From: Haloimpatiens lingqiaonensis
Lineage (GTDB): Bacteria; Bacillota; Clostridia; Clostridiales; Clostridiaceae
Direction: 5' to 3'
DNA: 64,000 nucleotides
NCBI RefSeq assembly: GCF_901447495.1
Contig: NZ_CABDWS010000002.1
Location: 1-64,000, forward strand
The position numbers and the translations under genes are program-made. Of this stretch, positions 39,346 through 60,380 are shown in pieces; position 1 is the stretch's first letter, and every line of letters starts with the position of its first letter. The notes under the pieces were generated by a model. That model was not told the origin of the DNA. It did no database searches and worked only from the letters and a program-made list of their open reading frames with translations.

Positions 39346-39374
39346 TTGACATCAGACTAAAAAAATGCTAAAAT
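39346..39374 (+). promoter_or_regulatory. Promoter and operator-like repeats of the R-M module
   Basis: TTGACA at 39346-39351, a 17-base spacer and TAAAAT at 39369-39374. Within and just after it are CAGACTAAA (39353), TTAGTCTAAA (39374) and CAGACTGA (39385), arranged as direct and inverted copies of AGACTAA, a plausible binding site for the AbrB-like product encoded next. Confidence 0.75.
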
Positions 39375-39408
39375 TAGTCTAAATACAGACTGATTTAAGG
39401 AGTAAAAA

Positions 39409-39585
39409 ATGCCAAATAAAAAGTGCATCTATTTAGATACTTATGTTCTTCAAAAAGATATGCGTATACGTTTACCCAAGCAGATACTTACTAATCTTGA
39501 TGTTAAGAAGGGGGAAACGTTATTTGATGTTTATGTTGATACAAAAACCAAAGAAATAATTTTACGTATTTCTAATAAAAACTAG
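39409..39585 (+). CDS. AbrB/SpoVT-like DNA-binding protein
   Basis: 58 residues (MPNKKCIYLDTYVLQKDM...). The stretch MRIRLPKQILTNLDVKKGETLFDVYVD followed by KEIILRI has the alternating pattern of the swapped-hairpin AbrB fold. Start ATG 39409 follows TTAAGGAG. It sits between a consensus promoter with repeated half-sites and the first methyltransferase gene (13 bases away), so it is likely an autoregulator or controller of the methyltransferases. Confidence 0.75.
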   Translation: MPNKKCIYLDTYVLQKDMRIRLPKQILTNLDVKKGETLFDVYVDTKTKEIILRISNKN

Positions 39586-39598
39586 GAAGGAAATAGAG

Positions 39599-40687
39599 AT
39601 GAAAGCAAGGAATCCAATTATACATTTTGAAAAGATAGACAGTGTTAATAATCCAAATTCAATGCATGGGATTTATCCATATAGAGGGAAAATTTCTGCT
39701 ATAGATGCGCAGAATATAATTAGACAATTACCATCAAAAGGAACTATTTTGGACCCGTTTTGTGGTTCAGGGACTATAGTGTATGAGGGACAAAGGCATG
39801 GCTTGAAGGCTATAGGAGTTGATAACAATCCGCTTGCAGTTCAGTTGTCTAAAGCCAAAATACATAAAGAAGTAGGAAATAGTATCGAAGAATGTAAGTA
39901 TTTGATCGAAATGGCTAAGAAAGATTTTGACTCTAAAAATTACGAGAAAATGCCAGAAGGACCTTTAAAATCTTTTCATGAGCAAACAGCTTCAGAAATT
40001 ATGTGCATGAAAAACTATTATGAATCCATGAACGATTACCTTAAAGGTGTCTTTTTTGGTGCTATTGCACTAGCTGCAAGAGGTTGTAATGGATATGTTT
40101 GGACTTCAAGTACAGTAGGAAAAAATATTGAACCAAAACGATATATTAATTTCTTTGAGAAAATGTTATCAAAGGCAAAGAAACACTCTAAGTATTTTAA
40201 TCCTCTTGAATGCGAAGCTGCTAGAATTATTCAGGGTGATAGTAGAAAATTATCAGAAATGATAGAACCACATAGTATCGACTTTGTTTTTACAAGTCCA
40301 CCATATTTTGATGGATTAGACTATACAGCATATTATGGAAAGCTTGTGTATGAAATTTTTGGAATAGATAGAGTTGAGGTAAAGAAAAATCTAATTCAAT
40401 ATGTTGATACATATGAAGCTGATATGAGAGCTGTTATTGAAGAACTAGAGAAAGTTACAACTGAGAATGCGTTAATCATATTTGTAGTTGGCGATAAAAA
40501 GGTTAAAGGTGGAGTTATTAATGGTGGAGACTTTTTTAGAAATATAAGAGAGGCTTCATATGTTGAAGAACGAAGTTATAGTGGTAGTTCAAGTCAAGTA
40601 TTTGATGTTTTAAATAGAACTAAAAGGAAAGAGCAAATTGTTGTTTGGGATAAATATAAAGGAGAAGTAATTAAACATGAATTTTAA
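39599..40687 (+). CDS. SPPY-type DNA methyltransferase 1
   Basis: 362 residues. The SAM-binding motif DPFCGSGT (52-59) comes before the catalytic motif TSPPY (232-236), the order of alpha/gamma-like enzymes; the N-terminal HGIYPYRGKISA block is common in split-architecture methyltransferases. SPPY usually marks N4-cytosine methylation, sometimes N6-adenine. Start ATG 39599 follows AGGAAGGA. It overlaps methyltransferase 2 by 11 bases. It differs in class from its neighbour, so the pair is not a tandem duplication; two enzymes often mean a non-palindromic target, each modifying one strand. Confidence 0.88.
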   Translation: MKARNPIIHFEKIDSVNNPNSMHGIYPYRGKISAIDAQNIIRQLPSKGTILDPFCGSGTIVYEGQRHGLKAIGVDNNPLAVQLSKAKIHKEVGNSIEECKYLIEMAKKDFDSKNYEKMPEGPLKSFHEQTASEIMCMKNYYESMNDYLKGVFFGAIALAARGCNGYVWTSSTVGKNIEPKRYINFFEKMLSKAKKHSKYFNPLECEAARIIQGDSRKLSEMIEPHSIDFVFTSPPYFDGLDYTAYYGKLVYEIFGIDRVEVKKNLIQYVDTYEADMRAVIEELEKVTTENALIIFVVGDKKVKGGVINGGDFFRNIREASYVEERSYSGSSSQVFDVLNRTKRKEQIVVWDKYKGEVIKHEF

Positions 40688-41516
40688 ACCGAAAGCTGAT
40701 ATATATATAGGTGATAGTAGAAATATGAAAGAAGTTGCGGATGGAAGTGTACAATTAATTATTACAAGTCCTCCGTACGGTGATTTGAAAGATTATGATA
40801 ATGAAGGCCAGATTGGTCTAAACCAATCATATGAAGATTATATTAATGACCTTAATGAAGTTTGGAAAGAGTGCATAAGAGTCCTTGGGCCAGATGGAAA
40901 GTTATGTATAAATATTATGCCTTTATTTGAATCTGGGAAAGCAACCCCTTTTAATAGAAGAGTTACGCATACAGTAATCTCAGATATTGAAAAGTTCATG
41001 GATTCAACAGGTGAAATGTTCACATTAGCTCTTTATATATGGGATAAGAGAAAGATTGCAAGATTTAGCTCTTTTGGAAGTTACCCATATCCGACTAACA
41101 TTTTTTCAACATTCCCATATGAATGGATTATTGTATTTTGTAAAAAGGGGAAAAGGGCTAAAGTAAGTGAAGAAATTAAAGAAAAATCAAAGTTAACACA
41201 GAAGGAATGGGCCGATTGGGCAGTTAATTCATTTTGGGAAATGCAACCAGCAAAAGCAAAGTCAGAAGGACATCCAGCTCCATTTCCGAAAGAACTTCCA
41301 TATAGGTTAATCAAATTGTACAGTTTTTATGGAGATACTGTGTTAGATCCATTTATGGGAACTGGTACAACAGCAGAGGCAGCATTAGAATTAGGTAGAA
41401 ATGCTATAGGATATGAAATAAATCCTGAATATAAACATCTTATTGAAGCAAAATTAGACAGAGTAAGGAATGAATGTCAACAAGTGTCGCTTTCAGAAAT
41501 GCTTACTGAAGATTGA
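40677..41516 (+). CDS. SPPY-type DNA methyltransferase 2 (beta class)
   Basis: 279 residues. The catalytic motif TSPPY (30-34) precedes the SAM motif DPFMGTGTT (224-232), which is the beta-class order seen in N4-cytosine enzymes such as M.PvuII. A middle segment with FSSFGSYPYPTNIFSTFPYEW is typical of this class, and no separate target-recognition domain is obvious. It is translationally coupled to methyltransferase 1 and ends at a two-way terminator opposite the converging restriction-like operon. Confidence 0.9.
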   Translation: MNFKPKADIYIGDSRNMKEVADGSVQLIITSPPYGDLKDYDNEGQIGLNQSYEDYINDLNEVWKECIRVLGPDGKLCINIMPLFESGKATPFNRRVTHTVISDIEKFMDSTGEMFTLALYIWDKRKIARFSSFGSYPYPTNIFSTFPYEWIIVFCKKGKRAKVSEEIKEKSKLTQKEWADWAVNSFWEMQPAKAKSEGHPAPFPKELPYRLIKLYSFYGDTVLDPFMGTGTTAEAALELGRNAIGYEINPEYKHLIEAKLDRVRNECQQVSLSEMLTED

Positions 41517-41543
41517 AGCGGTCAGATTATATAATATAATAAA

Positions 41544-41587
41544 AAACTAGGATTGTAAGTATATTCTAATACTTGCAATCCTAGTTT
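41544..41587. terminator. Two-way terminator between methyltransferase and nuclease operons
   Basis: The 19-base arms starting AAACTAGGATTG and ending CAATCCTAGTTT are complementary with one mismatch, flanked by an A-run on the left, so it can end transcription in both directions. Confidence 0.85.
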
Positions 41588-41588
41588 G

Positions 41589-42476
41589 CTAGAAAGACTC
41601 AATGGAGATGATGTCATTACGATTAACAACTTTTCCAGCAGATAGTAATCCTATACAGTGAGATTCAGAAAATAATTTACTAATAAAGATATCCCAAGAA
41701 TATTTATCACCATGTTCAAGATACCGGCAACATAAGCACCAAAGAGCGTTTGCAGAAATGAACTTAATATTATTCGTAGTAACAATTTCGTAAAAACGTT
41801 CTGATTTTGAACCAATTTTTCCTGTACAATATGGGCTTGTAGGGGGATATAAATCAGTCTCTTTACCACCAAAAAGTGTGATATAGTTATAATCTGTTAT
41901 CGACTTTTCAATTTCTGTTGTGTATTTATAATGTTGTTCAATAAATCGTTCATCTTTTAACGCATCATCTAATGAGATTTTTGTTTCAATTGCAAGTAAT
42001 TTATCTGAAGTCATAGAACACACATCTAAACGGCCATTGCGATCATAATCGTTGTTATAAATTGGAACTTCCATACCGACTCTATTAGAAGTTGAACACA
42101 TGTGATTAATTATGCCTGAAGTCCATGGTTGTATATTTGAAGTTTCATCGACTCCTGTAAATTCTTCAAGGTTTTTTATTGGGTTTTTTAAGGATTTTTT
42201 TGCAGTTGGCATAGTTACAGGTTTACCTTGGAATGATTCTTTTGAATACTTATTAATGAAGTCATCACCCCAAAAAACATTGAAATATTTTATAATTTCA
42301 TCATTATTAAAAATGCAAAATAGACAACCGAAGCATTTTTGTGTAAATGGATTAGGTTTTGAAAAATCTAATCCATTACATTTATAGACAATTGTATATT
42401 CTTCATCATTCTTCGTTTTTGGGATGTTTTTTATAAAAGAATCAATGTCTTTGTATTTTCTAAATTTATATATCAT
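41589..42476 (-). CDS. Probable PD-(D/E)xK nuclease with four-Cys cluster
   Basis: 295 residues, third gene of the minus-strand operon. LDVCSMTSDKLLAIETKI places Asp151, Glu164 and Lys166 as a PD-(D/E)xK active site, the commonest restriction-endonuclease fold. Upstream, Cys33, Cys48, Cys51 and Cys54 form a C-x14-C-x2-C-x2-C cluster able to bind zinc or an Fe-S centre. Cys-rich spacing next to such a nuclease is known in the Cas4/AddB type, but the order differs here. Its ATG overlaps the stop of the preceding gene. Facing two methyltransferases, it is the best candidate for the cutting subunit. Confidence 0.7.
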   Translation of the reverse strand: MIYKFRKYKDIDSFIKNIPKTKNDEEYTIVYKCNGLDFSKPNPFTQKCFGCLFCIFNNDEIIKYFNVFWGDDFINKYSKESFQGKPVTMPTAKKSLKNPIKNLEEFTGVDETSNIQPWTSGIINHMCSTSNRVGMEVPIYNNDYDRNGRLDVCSMTSDKLLAIETKISLDDALKDERFIEQHYKYTTEIEKSITDYNYITLFGGKETDLYPPTSPYCTGKIGSKSERFYEIVTTNNIKFISANALWCLCCRYLEHGDKYSWDIFISKLFSESHCIGLLSAGKVVNRNDIISIESF

Positions 42477-43678
42477 TAGTTAACCTCCATTTCTTCTATT
42501 ATTTTTTTGGCCAATTCTATTGATTCCTTGGGTGCATCTTCAATAAGGACATCATTATTAATAGTTGTTTTAGGAACTAGCATACCATAATCATCTATAT
42601 CAAACGGTATTCCTGCAATATCAGCGATATCACTTTCCGATTCCATTATAGTGGTAGGATCATTATTCTCTGAAAAGAATTCATCTGAGTATTCACTCAT
42701 TGCAGCTACTAGCTTTTCAAAATCTAGAGATTTATTTAATTTACTATAGTAGTTCAATGCGTATACAAAAACAAAACGTCTATTTAATATATTGTTGTTA
42801 TACTCCAGTGTAGCATTTCTTAAATCTTCGCCCCCATTCTCTCTTAAAGAAGCGACATTTTTGTGTAATCTCGAATAAGAAAGTGGATTGCTAACATAGG
42901 GTTTTGAATTGAATAGATTTATACAATGATCGGTTTTTTTATAGTTGCGTACTGTAAGTGTTTCTGAATTTACGAATTCTCTATATTTTATATGAGCAAG
43001 CGGAGAATCGTTAGCAGGGAAGTCTAAGGGCTCAATCAGTCCTACAGTGACGCACCAGCCAATTAATCGGGACATTGTTCTCGTATTACTATCACGTTGG
43101 CTATCTGTGGAAATATCAATATATACTGTATTGCCAGAACTATCAGTATACTTTACTATTTCTGTAGTATGAGGGTAGCTTAAATAAATGCCTGAATAGG
43201 AAAAGTTTGTAGGTAGCTTTGCTATTTTATTCAAGAATCCAATTGTAACCCCGTATGATAATACACCTTTTCTTGCGATAGCTTCCCATTCCGATGAATA
43301 AAAATCACTATTAACCCACTTTTCACCCTCTGAAGAAATTTTAAATTTCCTTTTATTACGGGAAACAAAGCCAAGAGCTTCAAGTGAACCGGCAATATCG
43401 CTTACAGCTTTTGATTTTGTAGAATCACTATCAACAGACTGAGTAGCATAGCATTTAGATAAATTAAGTGGATTGACTAAATAGGGGCAACATTTCCTGC
43501 CAACAATATTTTTCAAGAGGTTACAATAATTATGAACATTGTACGCATCATTTGGATCAAATTTTAAATCTTTAAGATTAAATTCTTTTGTAACACCATA
43601 CTTTTTATAACATGATGTTAATATGTAATAAAGGCATTCAAGACGACTACCATATTTTCTATTAAGTAATAAAGCCAT
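42476..43678 (-). CDS. Unknown protein with Cys cluster, R-M operon
   Basis: 400 residues, second gene of the operon. Cys52, Cys63, Cys64 and Cys76 (C-x10-CC-x11-C) form a possible metal site in the N-terminal part. Helical segments such as SDIAGSLEALGFVSRNKRKFKISSEGEKWV look like a winged-helix unit, suggesting DNA binding, perhaps target recognition. The acidic C-terminal part (ESESDIADIAGIPFDIDDYG) has no recognised domain. Its TAATG junctions on both sides tie it to its neighbours, so the product is likely part of one complex. The family is not recognised. Confidence 0.6.
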   Translation of the reverse strand: MALLLNRKYGSRLECLYYILTSCYKKYGVTKEFNLKDLKFDPNDAYNVHNYCNLLKNIVGRKCCPYLVNPLNLSKCYATQSVDSDSTKSKAVSDIAGSLEALGFVSRNKRKFKISSEGEKWVNSDFYSSEWEAIARKGVLSYGVTIGFLNKIAKLPTNFSYSGIYLSYPHTTEIVKYTDSSGNTVYIDISTDSQRDSNTRTMSRLIGWCVTVGLIEPLDFPANDSPLAHIKYREFVNSETLTVRNYKKTDHCINLFNSKPYVSNPLSYSRLHKNVASLRENGGEDLRNATLEYNNNILNRRFVFVYALNYYSKLNKSLDFEKLVAAMSEYSDEFFSENNDPTTIMESESDIADIAGIPFDIDDYGMLVPKTTINNDVLIEDAPKESIELAKKIIEEMEVN

Positions 43679-44307
43679 TAGTAATTACCTCCTACTTTAA
43701 TAAATAACTGTTCTAGATCGTATGTTTGAGCATCAAAGGGCAATTTGACGTTCAGTTTAGATGTTGGAATTAGATTACCATAAGTAAAATTTATATTAGG
43801 GTAAAGTTTATTATATGTATCAATTACTTCACCATATGAACGAGAATAAAACGGTATCTTTTCTAAGTTCTTTATTAGTTTTATAAGGTAAGCAGTTTTA
43901 TTTAAAAAGATTACTAAATCAATACGTTTTGTTCGAAAATTCCCTTTGACTTGTACCTCAGATGCTACAATTGCAGACGGAAATAAGGATTGAAATAGAA
44001 TGCTTGCTTTTCCTAAGTCACGAAAAAGGACACTTTCTAATTTTCTATTGAATAAACTAGTAATTGCAGCTGGAGTTTTTTTACAACATGCAATTTGGCA
44101 TAATCCGCAGTCGTCACATGCTGGTGTAATAACAAGTTTATTGTTTTCAAAACCCTGAGCAAACTTGTGGCAGATAAAATATTCTGAGTATTTTAACTCT
44201 GAATTTTCGATAATATCTTCTATGTAACTATTGCTAGGTATATTTTGAATAATACATTTTGGCATGTCTTTTACTTCAGGACAACCAATACAAAAATTTT
44301 TATCCAT
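43678..44307 (-). CDS. Ferredoxin-motif protein, first gene of nuclease operon
   Basis: 209 residues. Cys64, 67, 70 and 74 form a CxxCxxCxxxC motif (ACDDCGLCQIACCKK), the standard 4Fe-4S ligand pattern. Cys6, 9, 18 and 46 could form a second site. The C-terminal half (TKRIDLVIFLNKTAYLIKLIK) has the strand-Asp-strand-Lys rhythm of a PD-(D/E)xK core, with Asp130 and Lys143, but lacks the middle acidic residue of the E-x-K motif, so it may be an inactive subunit or a nuclease with a shifted residue. Start ATG 44307 follows GAAAGGAT; the upstream TTG at 44328 precedes it. A redox protein in a restriction operon is unusual. Confidence 0.65.
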   Translation of the reverse strand: MDKNFCIGCPEVKDMPKCIIQNIPSNSYIEDIIENSELKYSEYFICHKFAQGFENNKLVITPACDDCGLCQIACCKKTPAAITSLFNRKLESVLFRDLGKASILFQSLFPSAIVASEVQVKGNFRTKRIDLVIFLNKTAYLIKLIKNLEKIPFYSRSYGEVIDTYNKLYPNINFTYGNLIPTSKLNVKLPFDAQTYDLEQLFIKVGGNY

Positions 44308-44358
44308 TGATATCCTTTCTTTTGACAATTTGCTACCCCCTTAGTAAATAAAAACTAA

Positions 44359-44568
44359 TTAGTTATCATCATCTACGATTTCCATAATATCTGAAATATC
44401 ACAGTTAAGAGCCTTACATACTTTTATTAAGATATCAGTATTAACATTTTCATTTTTTCCGAGTTTAGCCATCGAGGCAGTACTAATACCAGCGGCTTCT
44501 CTTAAGTCCTTTTTCTTCATGTCTCTATCAATAAGAAGTTTCCATAGTTTTTTATAACTTATGGACAT
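44359..44568 (-). CDS. XRE-type HTH regulator
   Basis: 69 residues with a single helix-turn-helix domain: SYKKLWKLLIDRDMKKKDLREAAGISTASMAKLGKNENVNTDILIKVCKALNCDISDI. It resembles C-proteins of restriction systems as well as small phage repressors. It lies 51 bases upstream of the nuclease operon, same direction, so it may control it. Start ATG 44568 follows GCGAGGTGG; the longer frame to 44595 is upstream of the ribosome binding site. Confidence 0.88.
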   Translation of the reverse strand: MSISYKKLWKLLIDRDMKKKDLREAAGISTASMAKLGKNENVNTDILIKVCKALNCDISDIMEIVDDDN

Positions 44569-44763
44569 AATTGCCACCTCGCTTTTGTTACACATATTAG
44601 TTACAAATAAAAGTGTATCACAAAATCAGTGTTGGTACAATTAAAATTTACGAAAGCAAAATAAATATTGAGATGATCATAATATATGCTATAATTTACC
44701 TATGAGCTGATTTTTATCTATTTAATTAAGATGCATTTTCATATGGGGTCAGGAGGGAGTGTT

Positions 44764-46635
44764 TTGGCAAGCAATCGTTCATTTAAAGACTATGTGGCAG
44801 ATAGATTCTATAATGAAGTATTTGCTGCTATACAAAGTTACACCACGGACAACTACGATGATTTGGACTTAAGGCTATATAGGGTTCGAAATATTGGAGG
44901 CATAGAATTATCAGATATAGAGGTAAAGTTTGTATCTGTTAATGACTTGCCAGATATGAAAATAGAATTTGATATTGTTGTGGAAGCCGAATTAGAAGTC
45001 CGTGAGTCGGACTATCATTATGATGAATCGGAAAACTGTAGACAGTGGTTTATGCTGAAATGCACAGGTGATTTAGATTGCAATTTAGATGATTTCACAA
45101 TCTCCAGTGTAACTGAGTATTCCAGCAAAAATAGGCAGCCCAAACCTATGTCAGACTCTCTGGTACCTATCATTTACAAGGAACAACTGGAATCTGTTGC
45201 TACAGACTTCCTTCGCAGACATTACCCAGAAGCATTAAAAACCCCAATGGCAATTGAACCACAAGTACTAGCAGAAAATATGGGTCTTACAGTGGAAATG
45301 AGAGAAATTACAAAGGATTTCTCTGTTTTTGGACAGCTATACTTTCATGATTGTGATGCAGTATTCTATGATAAAGACAGTAACGAAATGGTGCAGACCC
45401 ATGTAGATGCCAGAACTATCATAGTTGATCCAAAAGCGTTCTTCCTACGTAATCTAGGATCGGTAAACAATACCATTGTCCATGAGTGTGTTCATTGGGA
45501 TCAGCATAGAAAAGCATTTGAATTGGAGCGGCTCTATAACAACAGCTTAACACGAATTAAGTGTCAGGTAGTTGGTGGCATAAAGGACAATAGCAGAGAT
45601 GCAACTGATTGGATGGAATGGCAGGCAAATGCTCTCACTCCAAAGATACAAATGCCTCTTGCAATGTTTAAAACCCAAGCGTTTAAGTATATTAAGCAAT
45701 TTCGTACGGAGTTAGGAACATCTGAACTTATAGATGTAATGGAGCCAGTTATTGACGCTTTGGCTACGTTTTTCTGTGTTTCTCGAACCGCTGCAAAAAT
45801 CCGAATGATTGATGCTGGGTATGAGGAAGCAATTGGAACTTTTACTTACATAGATGGTCGTTACGTCAAACCTCATAGGTTTAAGAAGGGTGCACTTGAA
45901 AAAAACCAGACATTTTCCATTGGTGCGGAAGATGCGGCAATTCAGGGACTTACCAACCCTACATTAAGTGCTCTTGGAAGGGATGGTAGTTACCAATATG
46001 TTGATGCACATTTTGTTTTAAACCATCCCAAGTATGTAACTCAGGATATATTTGGGGAGACCGTACTAACTGACTATGCACGTAACCATATGGATGAGTG
46101 CTGCTTGATATTTGATTTATCAATAAAGTCGGGATGTAAGGAACGATATCATAGTGAATGTTTCTTAAATAGGGATGAAACTTCAGATATCGCCTTTGAT
46201 ATAGTATATGGAAGAGGATATCAGCATGCTTCGCCAGAAAAAAAGGCAGAAATGCTGGCAGCAAAACTTATGGAAGAGAATCGTATATATGGTGAACTGC
46301 CAACTAACTATCATACTAGTCTGAAAATAGTGCGTGAGTGGAAAGATGTAACATTTAAAGAATTAGCGGAGAGAACGATGGTTAACGAACGCACTATAAG
46401 GCGAATCGTTAATGGTGAAGAACAAGGGTCATTAAATTCAATCATTTTAATTTGCCTTGGATTACATCTCCCACCTAGAATCAGCTATCATATAATTAAC
46501 AACTCTCCTTTTCGGTTGAATTTTCATAATAACAATAGTCATATCTGGTATGATTTTGCTCTAACATACCTTTACCCCCAAACGATGGACGAAATACGAG
46601 CTTTCTTGCTAAAGCAAGGTGCAGAACCATTATAA
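44764..46635 (+). CDS. ImmA/IrrE-family metallopeptidase with C-terminal HTH
   Basis: 623 residues. The zinc-peptidase motif HECVHWDQH (about residues 240-248) is preceded by IVHE-type strand context and an N-terminal helical domain. Near the C terminus FKELAERTMVNERTIRRIVNGEEQGSL is an HTH of the lambda-repressor type. ImmA/IrrE proteases cleave phage or element repressors to trigger excision. The product is longer than simple ImmA. It starts at TTG 44764 after AGGAGGG; the ATG at 44731 lies before this site. From here on GC content and codon use differ clearly from the host region. Confidence 0.85.
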   Translation: MASNRSFKDYVADRFYNEVFAAIQSYTTDNYDDLDLRLYRVRNIGGIELSDIEVKFVSVNDLPDMKIEFDIVVEAELEVRESDYHYDESENCRQWFMLKCTGDLDCNLDDFTISSVTEYSSKNRQPKPMSDSLVPIIYKEQLESVATDFLRRHYPEALKTPMAIEPQVLAENMGLTVEMREITKDFSVFGQLYFHDCDAVFYDKDSNEMVQTHVDARTIIVDPKAFFLRNLGSVNNTIVHECVHWDQHRKAFELERLYNNSLTRIKCQVVGGIKDNSRDATDWMEWQANALTPKIQMPLAMFKTQAFKYIKQFRTELGTSELIDVMEPVIDALATFFCVSRTAAKIRMIDAGYEEAIGTFTYIDGRYVKPHRFKKGALEKNQTFSIGAEDAAIQGLTNPTLSALGRDGSYQYVDAHFVLNHPKYVTQDIFGETVLTDYARNHMDECCLIFDLSIKSGCKERYHSECFLNRDETSDIAFDIVYGRGYQHASPEKKAEMLAAKLMEENRIYGELPTNYHTSLKIVREWKDVTFKELAERTMVNERTIRRIVNGEEQGSLNSIILICLGLHLPPRISYHIINNSPFRLNFHNNNSHIWYDFALTYLYPQTMDEIRAFLLKQGAEPL

Positions 46636-58632: not shown

Positions 58633-59184
58633 ATGGCCAAAGATGGAACAAATCGTGGCGGTGCCCGTATAGGCTCTGGTCAAAAAAAGAAACCACTTGC
58701 TGATAAAATTGCACAGGGTAATCCAGGTAAGAGAAAGCTAGAAATTATCGACTTCCAAAATACCGCTGATTTAAAGGGGCAGGAAATGCCAAAGCCAAGG
58801 GCCATGCTCTCAGCGGTGCAAAAGGACGGGAAAACCCTAGTAGCCAGCGAGATTTATGAAATTACTTGGAAATGGCTTGAGGAGCGAGGCTGTGCCCATT
58901 TGGTGCTCCCACAGCTTCTAGAACGATATGCCATGAGTGCGGCCAGATGGATACAGTGTGAGGAGGCGATAACTGAGTTTGGCTTTCTTGCCAAGCATCC
59001 AACTACCGGCAATGCTATTCAAAGTCCTTATGTAGCTATGAGTCAGAACTTTATGAGTCAGACAAACAGATTGTGGATGGAGATTTATCAAATCGTTAAA
59101 GAGAATTGTGCTACAGAGTATTCTGGTTTAAACCCACAGGACGATGTGATGGAGCGACTGCTATCTGCCCGCAGAGGAAAATAA
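58633..59184 (+). CDS. P27-family terminase small subunit
   Basis: 183 residues. N-terminal GTNRGGARIGSGQKKKPLADKIAQGNPGKRKLE, a basic extension typical of P27-type small terminase, followed by a helical body. It would recognise phage DNA for packaging together with a large subunit that is not visible in the window, because metK follows directly. The start follows AAGAGGTGAG. Confidence 0.9.
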   Translation: MAKDGTNRGGARIGSGQKKKPLADKIAQGNPGKRKLEIIDFQNTADLKGQEMPKPRAMLSAVQKDGKTLVASEIYEITWKWLEERGCAHLVLPQLLERYAMSAARWIQCEEAITEFGFLAKHPTTGNAIQSPYVAMSQNFMSQTNRLWMEIYQIVKENCATEYSGLNPQDDVMERLLSARRGK

Positions 59185-59186
59185 AG

Positions 59187-60380
59187 ATGAGTAGATATAT
59201 AATGAGTAAAAGATATTTAACAGCTGAAAGTGTATGTGCTGGACATCCTGATAAACTATGCGACATCATAGCAGATAGCATTTTAGAAGCATGTTTACGT
59301 AAAGACAAAGCATCACGTGTCGCTTGTGAGGTAATGGCAACCAAAGGGAAAATTATCGTGGCGGGTGAGATCTCCTGCAGCGAGAAAATTGATATCAGAT
59401 ATATTGTGAAGAATGTGCTTAAACAACTGGGTTATAACCCTTTGAAATTTTTAATTTATGTATATGTACACAATCAAAGTCCTGATATTGCAGCTGGTGT
59501 GAATACAGCACTAGAAGCACGAAATGGAATAAACGAACAGTATGGTTCTATCGGTGCTGGTGACCAAGGGACTATGTATGGATATGCCACAAAAGAAACT
59601 AGAGAAATGCTACCTCTTCCCCTTGTTTTATCTCATAGGATTGTAAAAAGAATAGATGAAGCAAGAAAAGGTAAGCTCATTAAAGGGATCCTTCCTGATG
59701 GGAAGGCACAGGTTACAATTGAGTATGATGGGGAGCTTCCAGTGAGAGTTAAGACCATTGTAGTATCTGTTCAGCATGAAAATAATAAAAGCCAGGAAGA
59801 GTTAAAAGCGGATATTATAAATTATGTATTATGGCAGTGCTTTGAGGACTTTCCTTTTGATAACGAAACAGAAATCTTAATTAATCCATCTGGCCAATTT
59901 ATATTAGGAGGACCTGCTGCAGATACAGGCTTAACTGGTAGAAAAATCATGGTAGATACTTATGGAGGTCTTGCTTCCCATGGTGGTGGCGCACTTAGCG
60001 GGAAGGATCCAACCAAAGTAGACCGAAGTGGTGCTTATATGGCCAGGTATATTGCTAAACATATCGTATGGTGTGGTTTTGCTGAGAAATGTGAAGTCAG
60101 TATTTCCTATGCCATCGGTAAGGCAAATCCTGTGGCTTTTTCAATAAATACATTTGGTACAGGAACTGTTTCAGATGAAGTTTTAACCCTAGCAGCTCAA
60201 GAGGTTTTCAACCTAAGGCCTGCAGCAATTATTGAAAAGCTTAGACTTAGAAACATTCACTACTCTGATACAGCGGTTTATGGACATTTTAATAGTTGTC
60301 TTTTCCCTTGGGAGGATGTTGATAGATACAATGAATTAAAAGCAGCGGTGGAAAAATATGTAGATAGGGAATATGTATAA
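59187..60380 (+). CDS. metK: S-adenosylmethionine synthetase encoded by the element
   Basis: 397 residues, full length. Makes SAM from methionine and ATP. All key motifs are intact: ESVCAGHPDKLCD (ATP/metal), GAGDQGTMYGYAT, GLTGRKIMVDTYGG, GGGALSGKDPTKVDRSGAYMARYIAK and GTGTVSDE. It sits where the large terminase would usually follow, two bases after the small-subunit gene, so it looks like an inserted accessory gene. Start ATG 59187 follows AGAGGAAAA; ATG 59202 is an alternative. Nearby methyltransferase genes give it an obvious use. Confidence 0.93.
   Translation: MSRYIMSKRYLTAESVCAGHPDKLCDIIADSILEACLRKDKASRVACEVMATKGKIIVAGEISCSEKIDIRYIVKNVLKQLGYNPLKFLIYVYVHNQSPDIAAGVNTALEARNGINEQYGSIGAGDQGTMYGYATKETREMLPLPLVLSHRIVKRIDEARKGKLIKGILPDGKAQVTIEYDGELPVRVKTIVVSVQHENNKSQEELKADIINYVLWQCFEDFPFDNETEILINPSGQFILGGPAADTGLTGRKIMVDTYGGLASHGGGALSGKDPTKVDRSGAYMARYIAKHIVWCGFAEKCEVSISYAIGKANPVAFSINTFGTGTVSDEVLTLAAQEVFNLRPAAIIEKLRLRNIHYSDTAVYGHFNSCLFPWEDVDRYNELKAAVEKYVDREYV

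What the first reader, a model, noticed from the sequence alone, without database searches (positions are those of the whole stretch)
39346..44568. Candidate undescribed restriction/defence module with three cysteine-cluster proteins
Sequence: an AbrB-like gene, two SPPY-type methyltransferases of different motif order, and a converging operon of three coupled genes behind an XRE gene. All three operon proteins have four-cysteine sets: C6/9/18/46 and a ferredoxin CxxCxxCxxxC at 64-74 in the first, C52/63/64/76 in the second, C33/48/51/54 in the third. The third has D151...E164-x-K166; the first has a similar but incomplete core. Knowledge: Type II systems with two methyltransferases and heteromeric nucleases (BbvCI type) exist, but I know of none with a ferredoxin-type subunit. 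Inference: a multi-subunit, possibly redox-sensitive Fe-S restriction complex.
Basis: partly seen in the sequence, partly recalled or inferred. Interest (0 to 1): 0.82.

Follow-up and report, generated by a model that had tools for sequence, protein, structure and literature searches.

The report
Prophage restriction system with ferredoxin-like subunit
A bacterial virus sleeping in a Clostridium-family genome carries a compact DNA-defence cassette of two DNA-marking enzymes and three unfamiliar partner proteins, two of which carry the cysteine signature of iron-sulfur proteins; no described restriction enzyme is known to be built this way, though that is a prediction from sequence.

Summary
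Six genes form a module: abrB-M1-M2, converging on C-B-A (39409-44328). The same order recurs in Clostridium tyrobutyricum ATCC 25755 (85-94% protein identity) and in a genome of another clostridial family (26-67%). M1 and C pick out the same three of 391 genomes of the class, so the genes travel together. A, B and C match nothing in Pfam, NCBIfam, PADLOC, PHROGs or the PDB above threshold; M1 and M2 are amino-methyltransferases with opposite motif order. The conserved cysteines are A C53/71/74/77 (+C25), B C15/52/64/76 (not C63) and C C33/48/51/54. CxxCxxC occurs in only two of 91 ORFs of the contig, A and C. C keeps an invariant D151...E164-x-K166; in A the Glu is Leu.

The XRE gene and the 634-aa gene are prophage backbone. 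The module fills the slot next to rlmD where related phages carry LlaJI-type restriction systems or resistance genes. Best reading: a mobile Type II-like restriction-modification system with two methyltransferases and a three-subunit endonuclease; C cuts, B reads DNA, A is a ferredoxin-like pseudo-nuclease. Metal, nuclease activity and defence are untested; structure prediction failed because only three sequences exist.

The parts
39409..39585 (+). abrB: 58-aa AbrB/MazE-like DNA-binding protein, first gene of the methyltransferase operon; probable regulator
   Evidence: Weak MazE_antitoxin/AbrB-type hits; conserved in all three copies, 93% and 50% identity
39599..40687 (+). M1: amino-methyltransferase, FxGxG motif at 52, SPPY at 233
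   Evidence: Pfam N6_N4_Mtase 1.5e-12; motif positions; 92% and 59% identity
40677..41516 (+). M2: beta-class amino-methyltransferase, SPPY at 31, FxGxG at 224; overlaps M1 by 11 bases
   Evidence: Pfam N6_N4_Mtase 1.9e-47; PDB 2zie 1.1e-37; 94% and 67% identity
41545..41590 (.). Hairpin between the converging operons, probable bidirectional terminator
   Evidence: Long stem in the -28 kcal/mol fold; comparable hairpins at the same place in L005 and L012
41589..42476 (-). C: candidate PD-(D/E)XK nuclease subunit (E136...D145RNGRxD151...E164xK166) with N-terminal C33-x14-C48xxC51xxC54
   Evidence: All these residues invariant in three copies; dN/dS 0.10; no family hit
42476..43678 (-). B: 400-aa candidate DNA-recognition subunit with conserved C15, C52, C64, C76
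   Evidence: 92% and 44% identity; the L012 copy has a sub-threshold AAA_assoc_C match 2.1e-4; no P-loop
43678..44328 (-). A: half-ferredoxin-like N-terminus (C53 + C71xxC74xxC77) followed by a PD-(D/E)XK-like core with the Glu replaced by Leu (E124...D137...LxK150)
   Evidence: Invariant positions; weak ferredoxin hits; dN/dS 0.25
44359..44595 (-). XRE regulator: prophage backbone, not part of the module
   Evidence: Absent in L012; same position in S. suis rum prophage
44731..46635 (+). phrog_4031 protein: prophage backbone gene that marks the cargo slot
   Evidence: PHROG hit 1.1e-197; 56 phage records

Best explanation
It is a mobile Type II-like restriction-modification cassette carried by a prophage integrated at the 3' end of rlmD. 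M1 and M2 each methylate one strand of a (probably asymmetric) site and protect the cell. A, B and C form one heteromeric endonuclease: C supplies the PD-(D/E)XK cutting site, B binds DNA and reads the site, and A is a ferredoxin-like, catalytically degenerate nuclease paralogue that acts as structural or regulatory partner, probably holding a [4Fe-4S] cluster. AbrB regulates the methyltransferase side. It protects the lysogen from other phages. Shown here: gene content, order, co-occurrence, selection, conserved residues, cargo-slot location. Inferred: complex formation, cutting, metal type, site, defence.
For: Same six genes in the same order in three genomes, including another family at 26-67% identity. 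M1 and C pick out the same 3 of 391 genomes. Nuclease core residues of C are invariant. All genes are under purifying selection, dN/dS 0.10-0.25. CxxCxxC only in A and C among 91 ORFs. The cassette genes are about 87-94% identical in DNA to C. tyrobutyricum while flanking rlmD is 67-70%. The same slot holds LlaJI/McrBC-type restriction systems in three gut phages, resistance genes in S. suis, and the related prophage Phi1207.3 carries SpyI, a methylase plus LlaJI-type subunits (PMC4260502).
Against: No sequence family confirms that C is a nuclease. AlphaFold models of C and A failed (pLDDT 32 and 34) and fold searches gave nothing. A and C are not detectably homologous by profile. Only three independent copies exist in what was searched. 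No activity data.
Confidence: 0.6

Rival explanations
1. The same restriction system, but the Cys4 sets of A, B and C bind zinc (or a single iron) as structural sites, as in BslI, DpnI, PacI or NotI. There is no Fe-S cluster and no redox role.
For: Cys4 zinc sites in Type II enzymes, and Cys4 iron in NotI, are established (PMC4081073). B has no CxxCxxC. Ferredoxin profile matches are far below cut-off.
Against: A and C use C plus CxxCxxC, typical of [4Fe-4S] sites, not the CxxC...CxxC of zinc ribbons. In the L012 copy the first Cys is CP, as in ferredoxins.
Confidence: 0.25
2. A defence system that is not a classical endonuclease: M1/M2 mark self DNA and A-B-C block replication or kill the infected cell, as in BREX- or DISARM-like logic.
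For: No endonuclease family hit; the nuclease core rests on motif conservation only.
Against: No ATPase or helicase, which those systems need. D/ExK invariant in C.
Confidence: 0.09
3. A McrBC/LlaJI/BsuMI-type system in disguise, like its neighbours in the same slot.
For: Same slot, two methyltransferases and several restriction genes.
Against: No P-loop in A, B or C in any copy. No AAA_5, RE_LlaJI or McrBC match, while the neighbours' genes match these strongly.
Confidence: 0.02
4. A-B-C are phage or regulatory genes that merely sit beside an orphan methyltransferase pair.
For: They are transcribed from the opposite strand, next to the phage regulators.
Against: Same arrangement in two families; M1 and C occur in the same 3 of 391 genomes; the XRE gene is missing between A and the phage gene in L012 while A-B-C and M1-M2 stay together.
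Confidence: 0.04

Closest known systems
Type IIT heteromeric enzymes (BbvCI, Bpu10I) and the heterotetramer BslI
   Same: Restriction enzyme made of different subunits; Cys4 zinc sites in BslI (PMC4081073); two methyltransferases in BbvCI/Bpu10I (general knowledge)
   Different: Three subunits here, of which only one has an intact catalytic core; no sequence-family match found; CxxCxxC clusters rather than zinc-type pairs
LlaJI / SpyI / BsuMI (McrBC-like Type II systems)
   Same: Several restriction genes plus methyltransferase(s); LlaJI has two for an asymmetric site (PMC12707154); same prophage cargo slot (PMC4260502)
   Different: LlaJI and SpyI use an AAA NTPase and a LlaJI/McrC nuclease; here neither is present. 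BsuMI is compared from general knowledge only
NotI (Fe-Cys4 restriction enzyme)
   Same: Restriction enzyme with iron on four cysteines as a structural site (PMC4081073)
   Different: Single homodimeric protein (general knowledge); no half-ferredoxin spacing; no similarity found in the PDB search
Cas4 / AddB-type Fe-S nucleases
   Same: PD-(D/E)XK nuclease with four cysteines holding an Fe-S cluster (PMC5704561)
   Different: In Cas4 the cysteines flank the nuclease (general knowledge); in C all four lie before it, and in A the nuclease core is degenerate. No sequence match

Membership tests
Type II restriction-modification system | Cognate DNA methyltransferase(s) encoded with the restriction genes | tested here: met
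   M1 and M2 are N6/N4 methyltransferases; M1 occurs only with C in the class sample
Type II restriction-modification system | Endonuclease cutting at or near the site without ATP | not testable with these tools
   Only motif evidence: D151/E164/K166 invariant; no P-loop
Type IIT | Two different catalytic sites, often on two different subunits | tested here: inconclusive
   C has an intact D...ExK; A has D...LxK in all copies
LlaJI/McrBC-like | AAA/GTPase subunit with P-loop | tested here: not met
   No Walker A and no AAA ATPase hit in A, B, C
LlaJI/McrBC-like | RE_LlaJI or McrC-type nuclease | tested here: not met
   No hit for A, B, C; neighbours in the same slot do hit
[4Fe-4S] ferredoxin-type protein | CxxCxxC plus a distant Cys, conserved | tested here: met
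   A C53+C71/74/77 and C C33+C48/51/54 invariant
[4Fe-4S] ferredoxin-type protein | Significant match to a Fer4 family | tested here: not met
   Best Pfam E 0.038, below the curated cut-off; PDB profile hits E 0.5-3
[4Fe-4S] ferredoxin-type protein | Bound cluster | not testable with these tools
   Needs purified protein
PD-(D/E)XK nuclease (C) | D...(D/E)xK residues conserved on the core fold | tested here: inconclusive
   Residues invariant; fold not modelled, pLDDT 32
Cas4 | Sequence membership of the Cas4 family | tested here: not met
   No Pfam or NCBIfam hit for A or C

The most novel reading that the evidence does not exclude
A new class of restriction enzyme: a three-subunit complex in which a ferredoxin-like pseudo-nuclease and a nuclease each hold a [4Fe-4S] cluster, so that DNA cutting depends on, or senses, anaerobic or redox state.
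Probability: 0.25. Interest if true: 0.85.

Novelty: new variant of a known kind. Interest (0 to 1): 0.6.

Why it matters
No restriction endonuclease with an Fe-S ferredoxin-type subunit turned up in the libraries or papers searched here. If real, it would link restriction to iron-sulfur chemistry, otherwise known in defence from Cas4 nucleases and phosphorothioation enzymes, and would add a three-protein architecture without ATPase. It also shows that a known prophage cargo slot (Phi1207.3/Phi-m46.1 type) is a good place to look for undescribed restriction systems. C. tyrobutyricum ATCC 25755, an industrial strain, carries a copy, so activity could be tested in a culturable host and may matter for its transformation.

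Tried and rejected
AlphaFold of C and A from three-row alignments: pLDDT 32 and 34, so no fold claim. In A's model the order of elements over 97-185 (helix, three strands, helix, strand) fits a PD-(D/E)XK core, but confidence is far too low to count. Foldseek of both models: no match below 0.001.

Profile comparison of A with C: not significant.

Weak genome hits L003, L007-L010, L028, L032 and L033 were taken as chance (short, most with stops inside, no partner genes found where looked; L032 and L033 were not read). The G264 methyltransferase hit is a different system with a fused double methyltransferase; A/B/C do not match its neighbours.

Searches of phages, plasmids and viral contigs for C, B, A and M1 gave no copy beyond the C. 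tyrobutyricum prophage. No paper on a C. tyrobutyricum methylome or on this system was found. The XRE and the 634-aa gene were considered as module parts and rejected.

Full report
What is there. The window lies on contig C2 of a genome whose relatives place it in the same family as C. tyrobutyricum. From 39409 to 44328 six genes form two converging operons: abrB, M1, M2 on the + strand and A, B, C on the - strand. M1 and M2 overlap by 11 bases; A/B and B/C overlap by one base, and a strong hairpin lies between the two operons in all three copies.

Methyltransferases. M1 has the SAM motif first and SPPY second; M2 has SPPY first. Both are N6_N4_Mtase proteins; M2 resembles PDB 2zie. SPPY suggests, but does not prove, N4-cytosine methylation (general knowledge). 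Two different enzymes suggest an asymmetric site, as in LlaJI (PMC12707154).

The three orphan proteins. None has a family match in Pfam, NCBIfam, PADLOC or PHROGs above cut-off, or a significant PDB sequence match. The L012 copy of B has a sub-threshold AAA_assoc_C match (2.1e-4), which I read as a hint of a winged-helix region.

Relatives. Two further full copies were found: C. tyrobutyricum ATCC 25755 (L005; 85-94% identity) and G213 (L012; another family of the class; 26-67%). A near-identical fragment is in a clostridial metagenome bin (L004). In 391 genomes of the class, the M1 profile and protein C find exactly the same three genomes, apart from one distant methyltransferase (113 bits against more than 700) and weak chance hits of C. 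The phylum samples (398 genomes) add none. The system is rare.

Conserved residues. C: C33, C48, C51, C54, E136, D145, R146, N147, G148, R149, D151, E164, K166 are invariant. A: C25, C53, C71, C74, C77, E124, D137, K150 are invariant, with Leu where the ExK Glu would be. B: C15, C52, C64, C76 and C209 are invariant. CxxCxxC is found in two of 91 ORFs on the contig, A and C, against 0.07 expected. All genes are under purifying selection (dN/dS 0.10-0.25 against L005). The A profile's only PDB hits, all weak (E 0.5-3), are five Fe-S proteins, aligned within residues 52-86.

Context. The 634-aa gene at 44731 is phrog_4031, and a phage genome follows: replication genes, SAM synthetase, terminase, tail, and serine recombinases to about 88.1 kb (functions read from the sequences by eye). 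The prophage starts beside rlmD (rum), a known insertion hotspot (PMC5053989). In S. suis phage phi-SsuSSJ28_rum the stretch between rum and XRE/phrog_4031 holds resistance genes. In three gut phages the genes upstream of phrog_4031 belong to a LlaJI- or McrBC-type restriction system. The related Phi1207.3 carries SpyI, a methylase with LlaJI-type subunits, near polymerase and DUF2815 genes (PMC4260502). The module is thus cargo in a slot used for restriction systems. Its DNA identity to C. tyrobutyricum is about 87-94% over the genes, against 67-70% in rlmD and 60-70% in the 3' half of phrog_4031. Its G+C is 31.7% against 40.8% for the phage backbone in the window and 31.2% for the host part. 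It has moved as a cassette.

Mechanism. Shown: content, order, co-occurrence, selection, conserved residues, slot. Inferred: C cuts, B reads the site, A is a structural or regulatory subunit derived from a nuclease. I give about 0.85 to restriction or restriction-like defence, 0.6 to the full model as stated, about 0.6 to an Fe-S cluster in A and about 0.45 in C. Redox control is speculation.

Comparison. Cys4 metal sites are known in Type II enzymes: zinc in BslI, PacI and DpnI, iron in NotI (PMC4081073). So a metal-bearing restriction enzyme is not new; a ferredoxin-type subunit and a three-subunit ATPase-free enzyme would be. LlaJI-type membership is excluded by the missing P-loop. Hence 'new variant of a known kind'.

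Limits. Three sequences are too few for structure prediction; the fold searches are uninformative. The genome collection holds one genome per species, so prevalence within species is unknown.

Noticed in passing
window 59106-60380: The prophage encodes its own S-adenosylmethionine synthetase, as do an S. suis rum prophage and Phi1207.3; possibly a methyl-donor supply for phage methyltransferases.
   Followed up: partly
window 44731-46635; L029, L034, L035, L030: The gene family phrog_4031 (metalloprotease-like region plus HTH) marks a cargo slot that carries LlaJI/McrBC-type restriction systems or resistance genes in other phages; it could be used to hunt for new defence systems.
   Followed up: partly
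L022 3395-7595: Another unfamiliar restriction candidate in G264: an 838-aa fused double methyltransferase followed by 405-aa and 157-aa proteins without Pfam hits; the small one has a PD...ExK-like motif.
   Followed up: partly
L035 7174-7992: A 272-aa HTH protein sits between the LlaJI-type genes and phrog_4031; a gene of the same length sits there in L029. Probably a regulator of the slot.
   Followed up: no
L024, contig C2 102738-103364: A fragment resembling a Type I HsdM protein near the end of the contig, so the host may have another restriction system.
   Followed up: no
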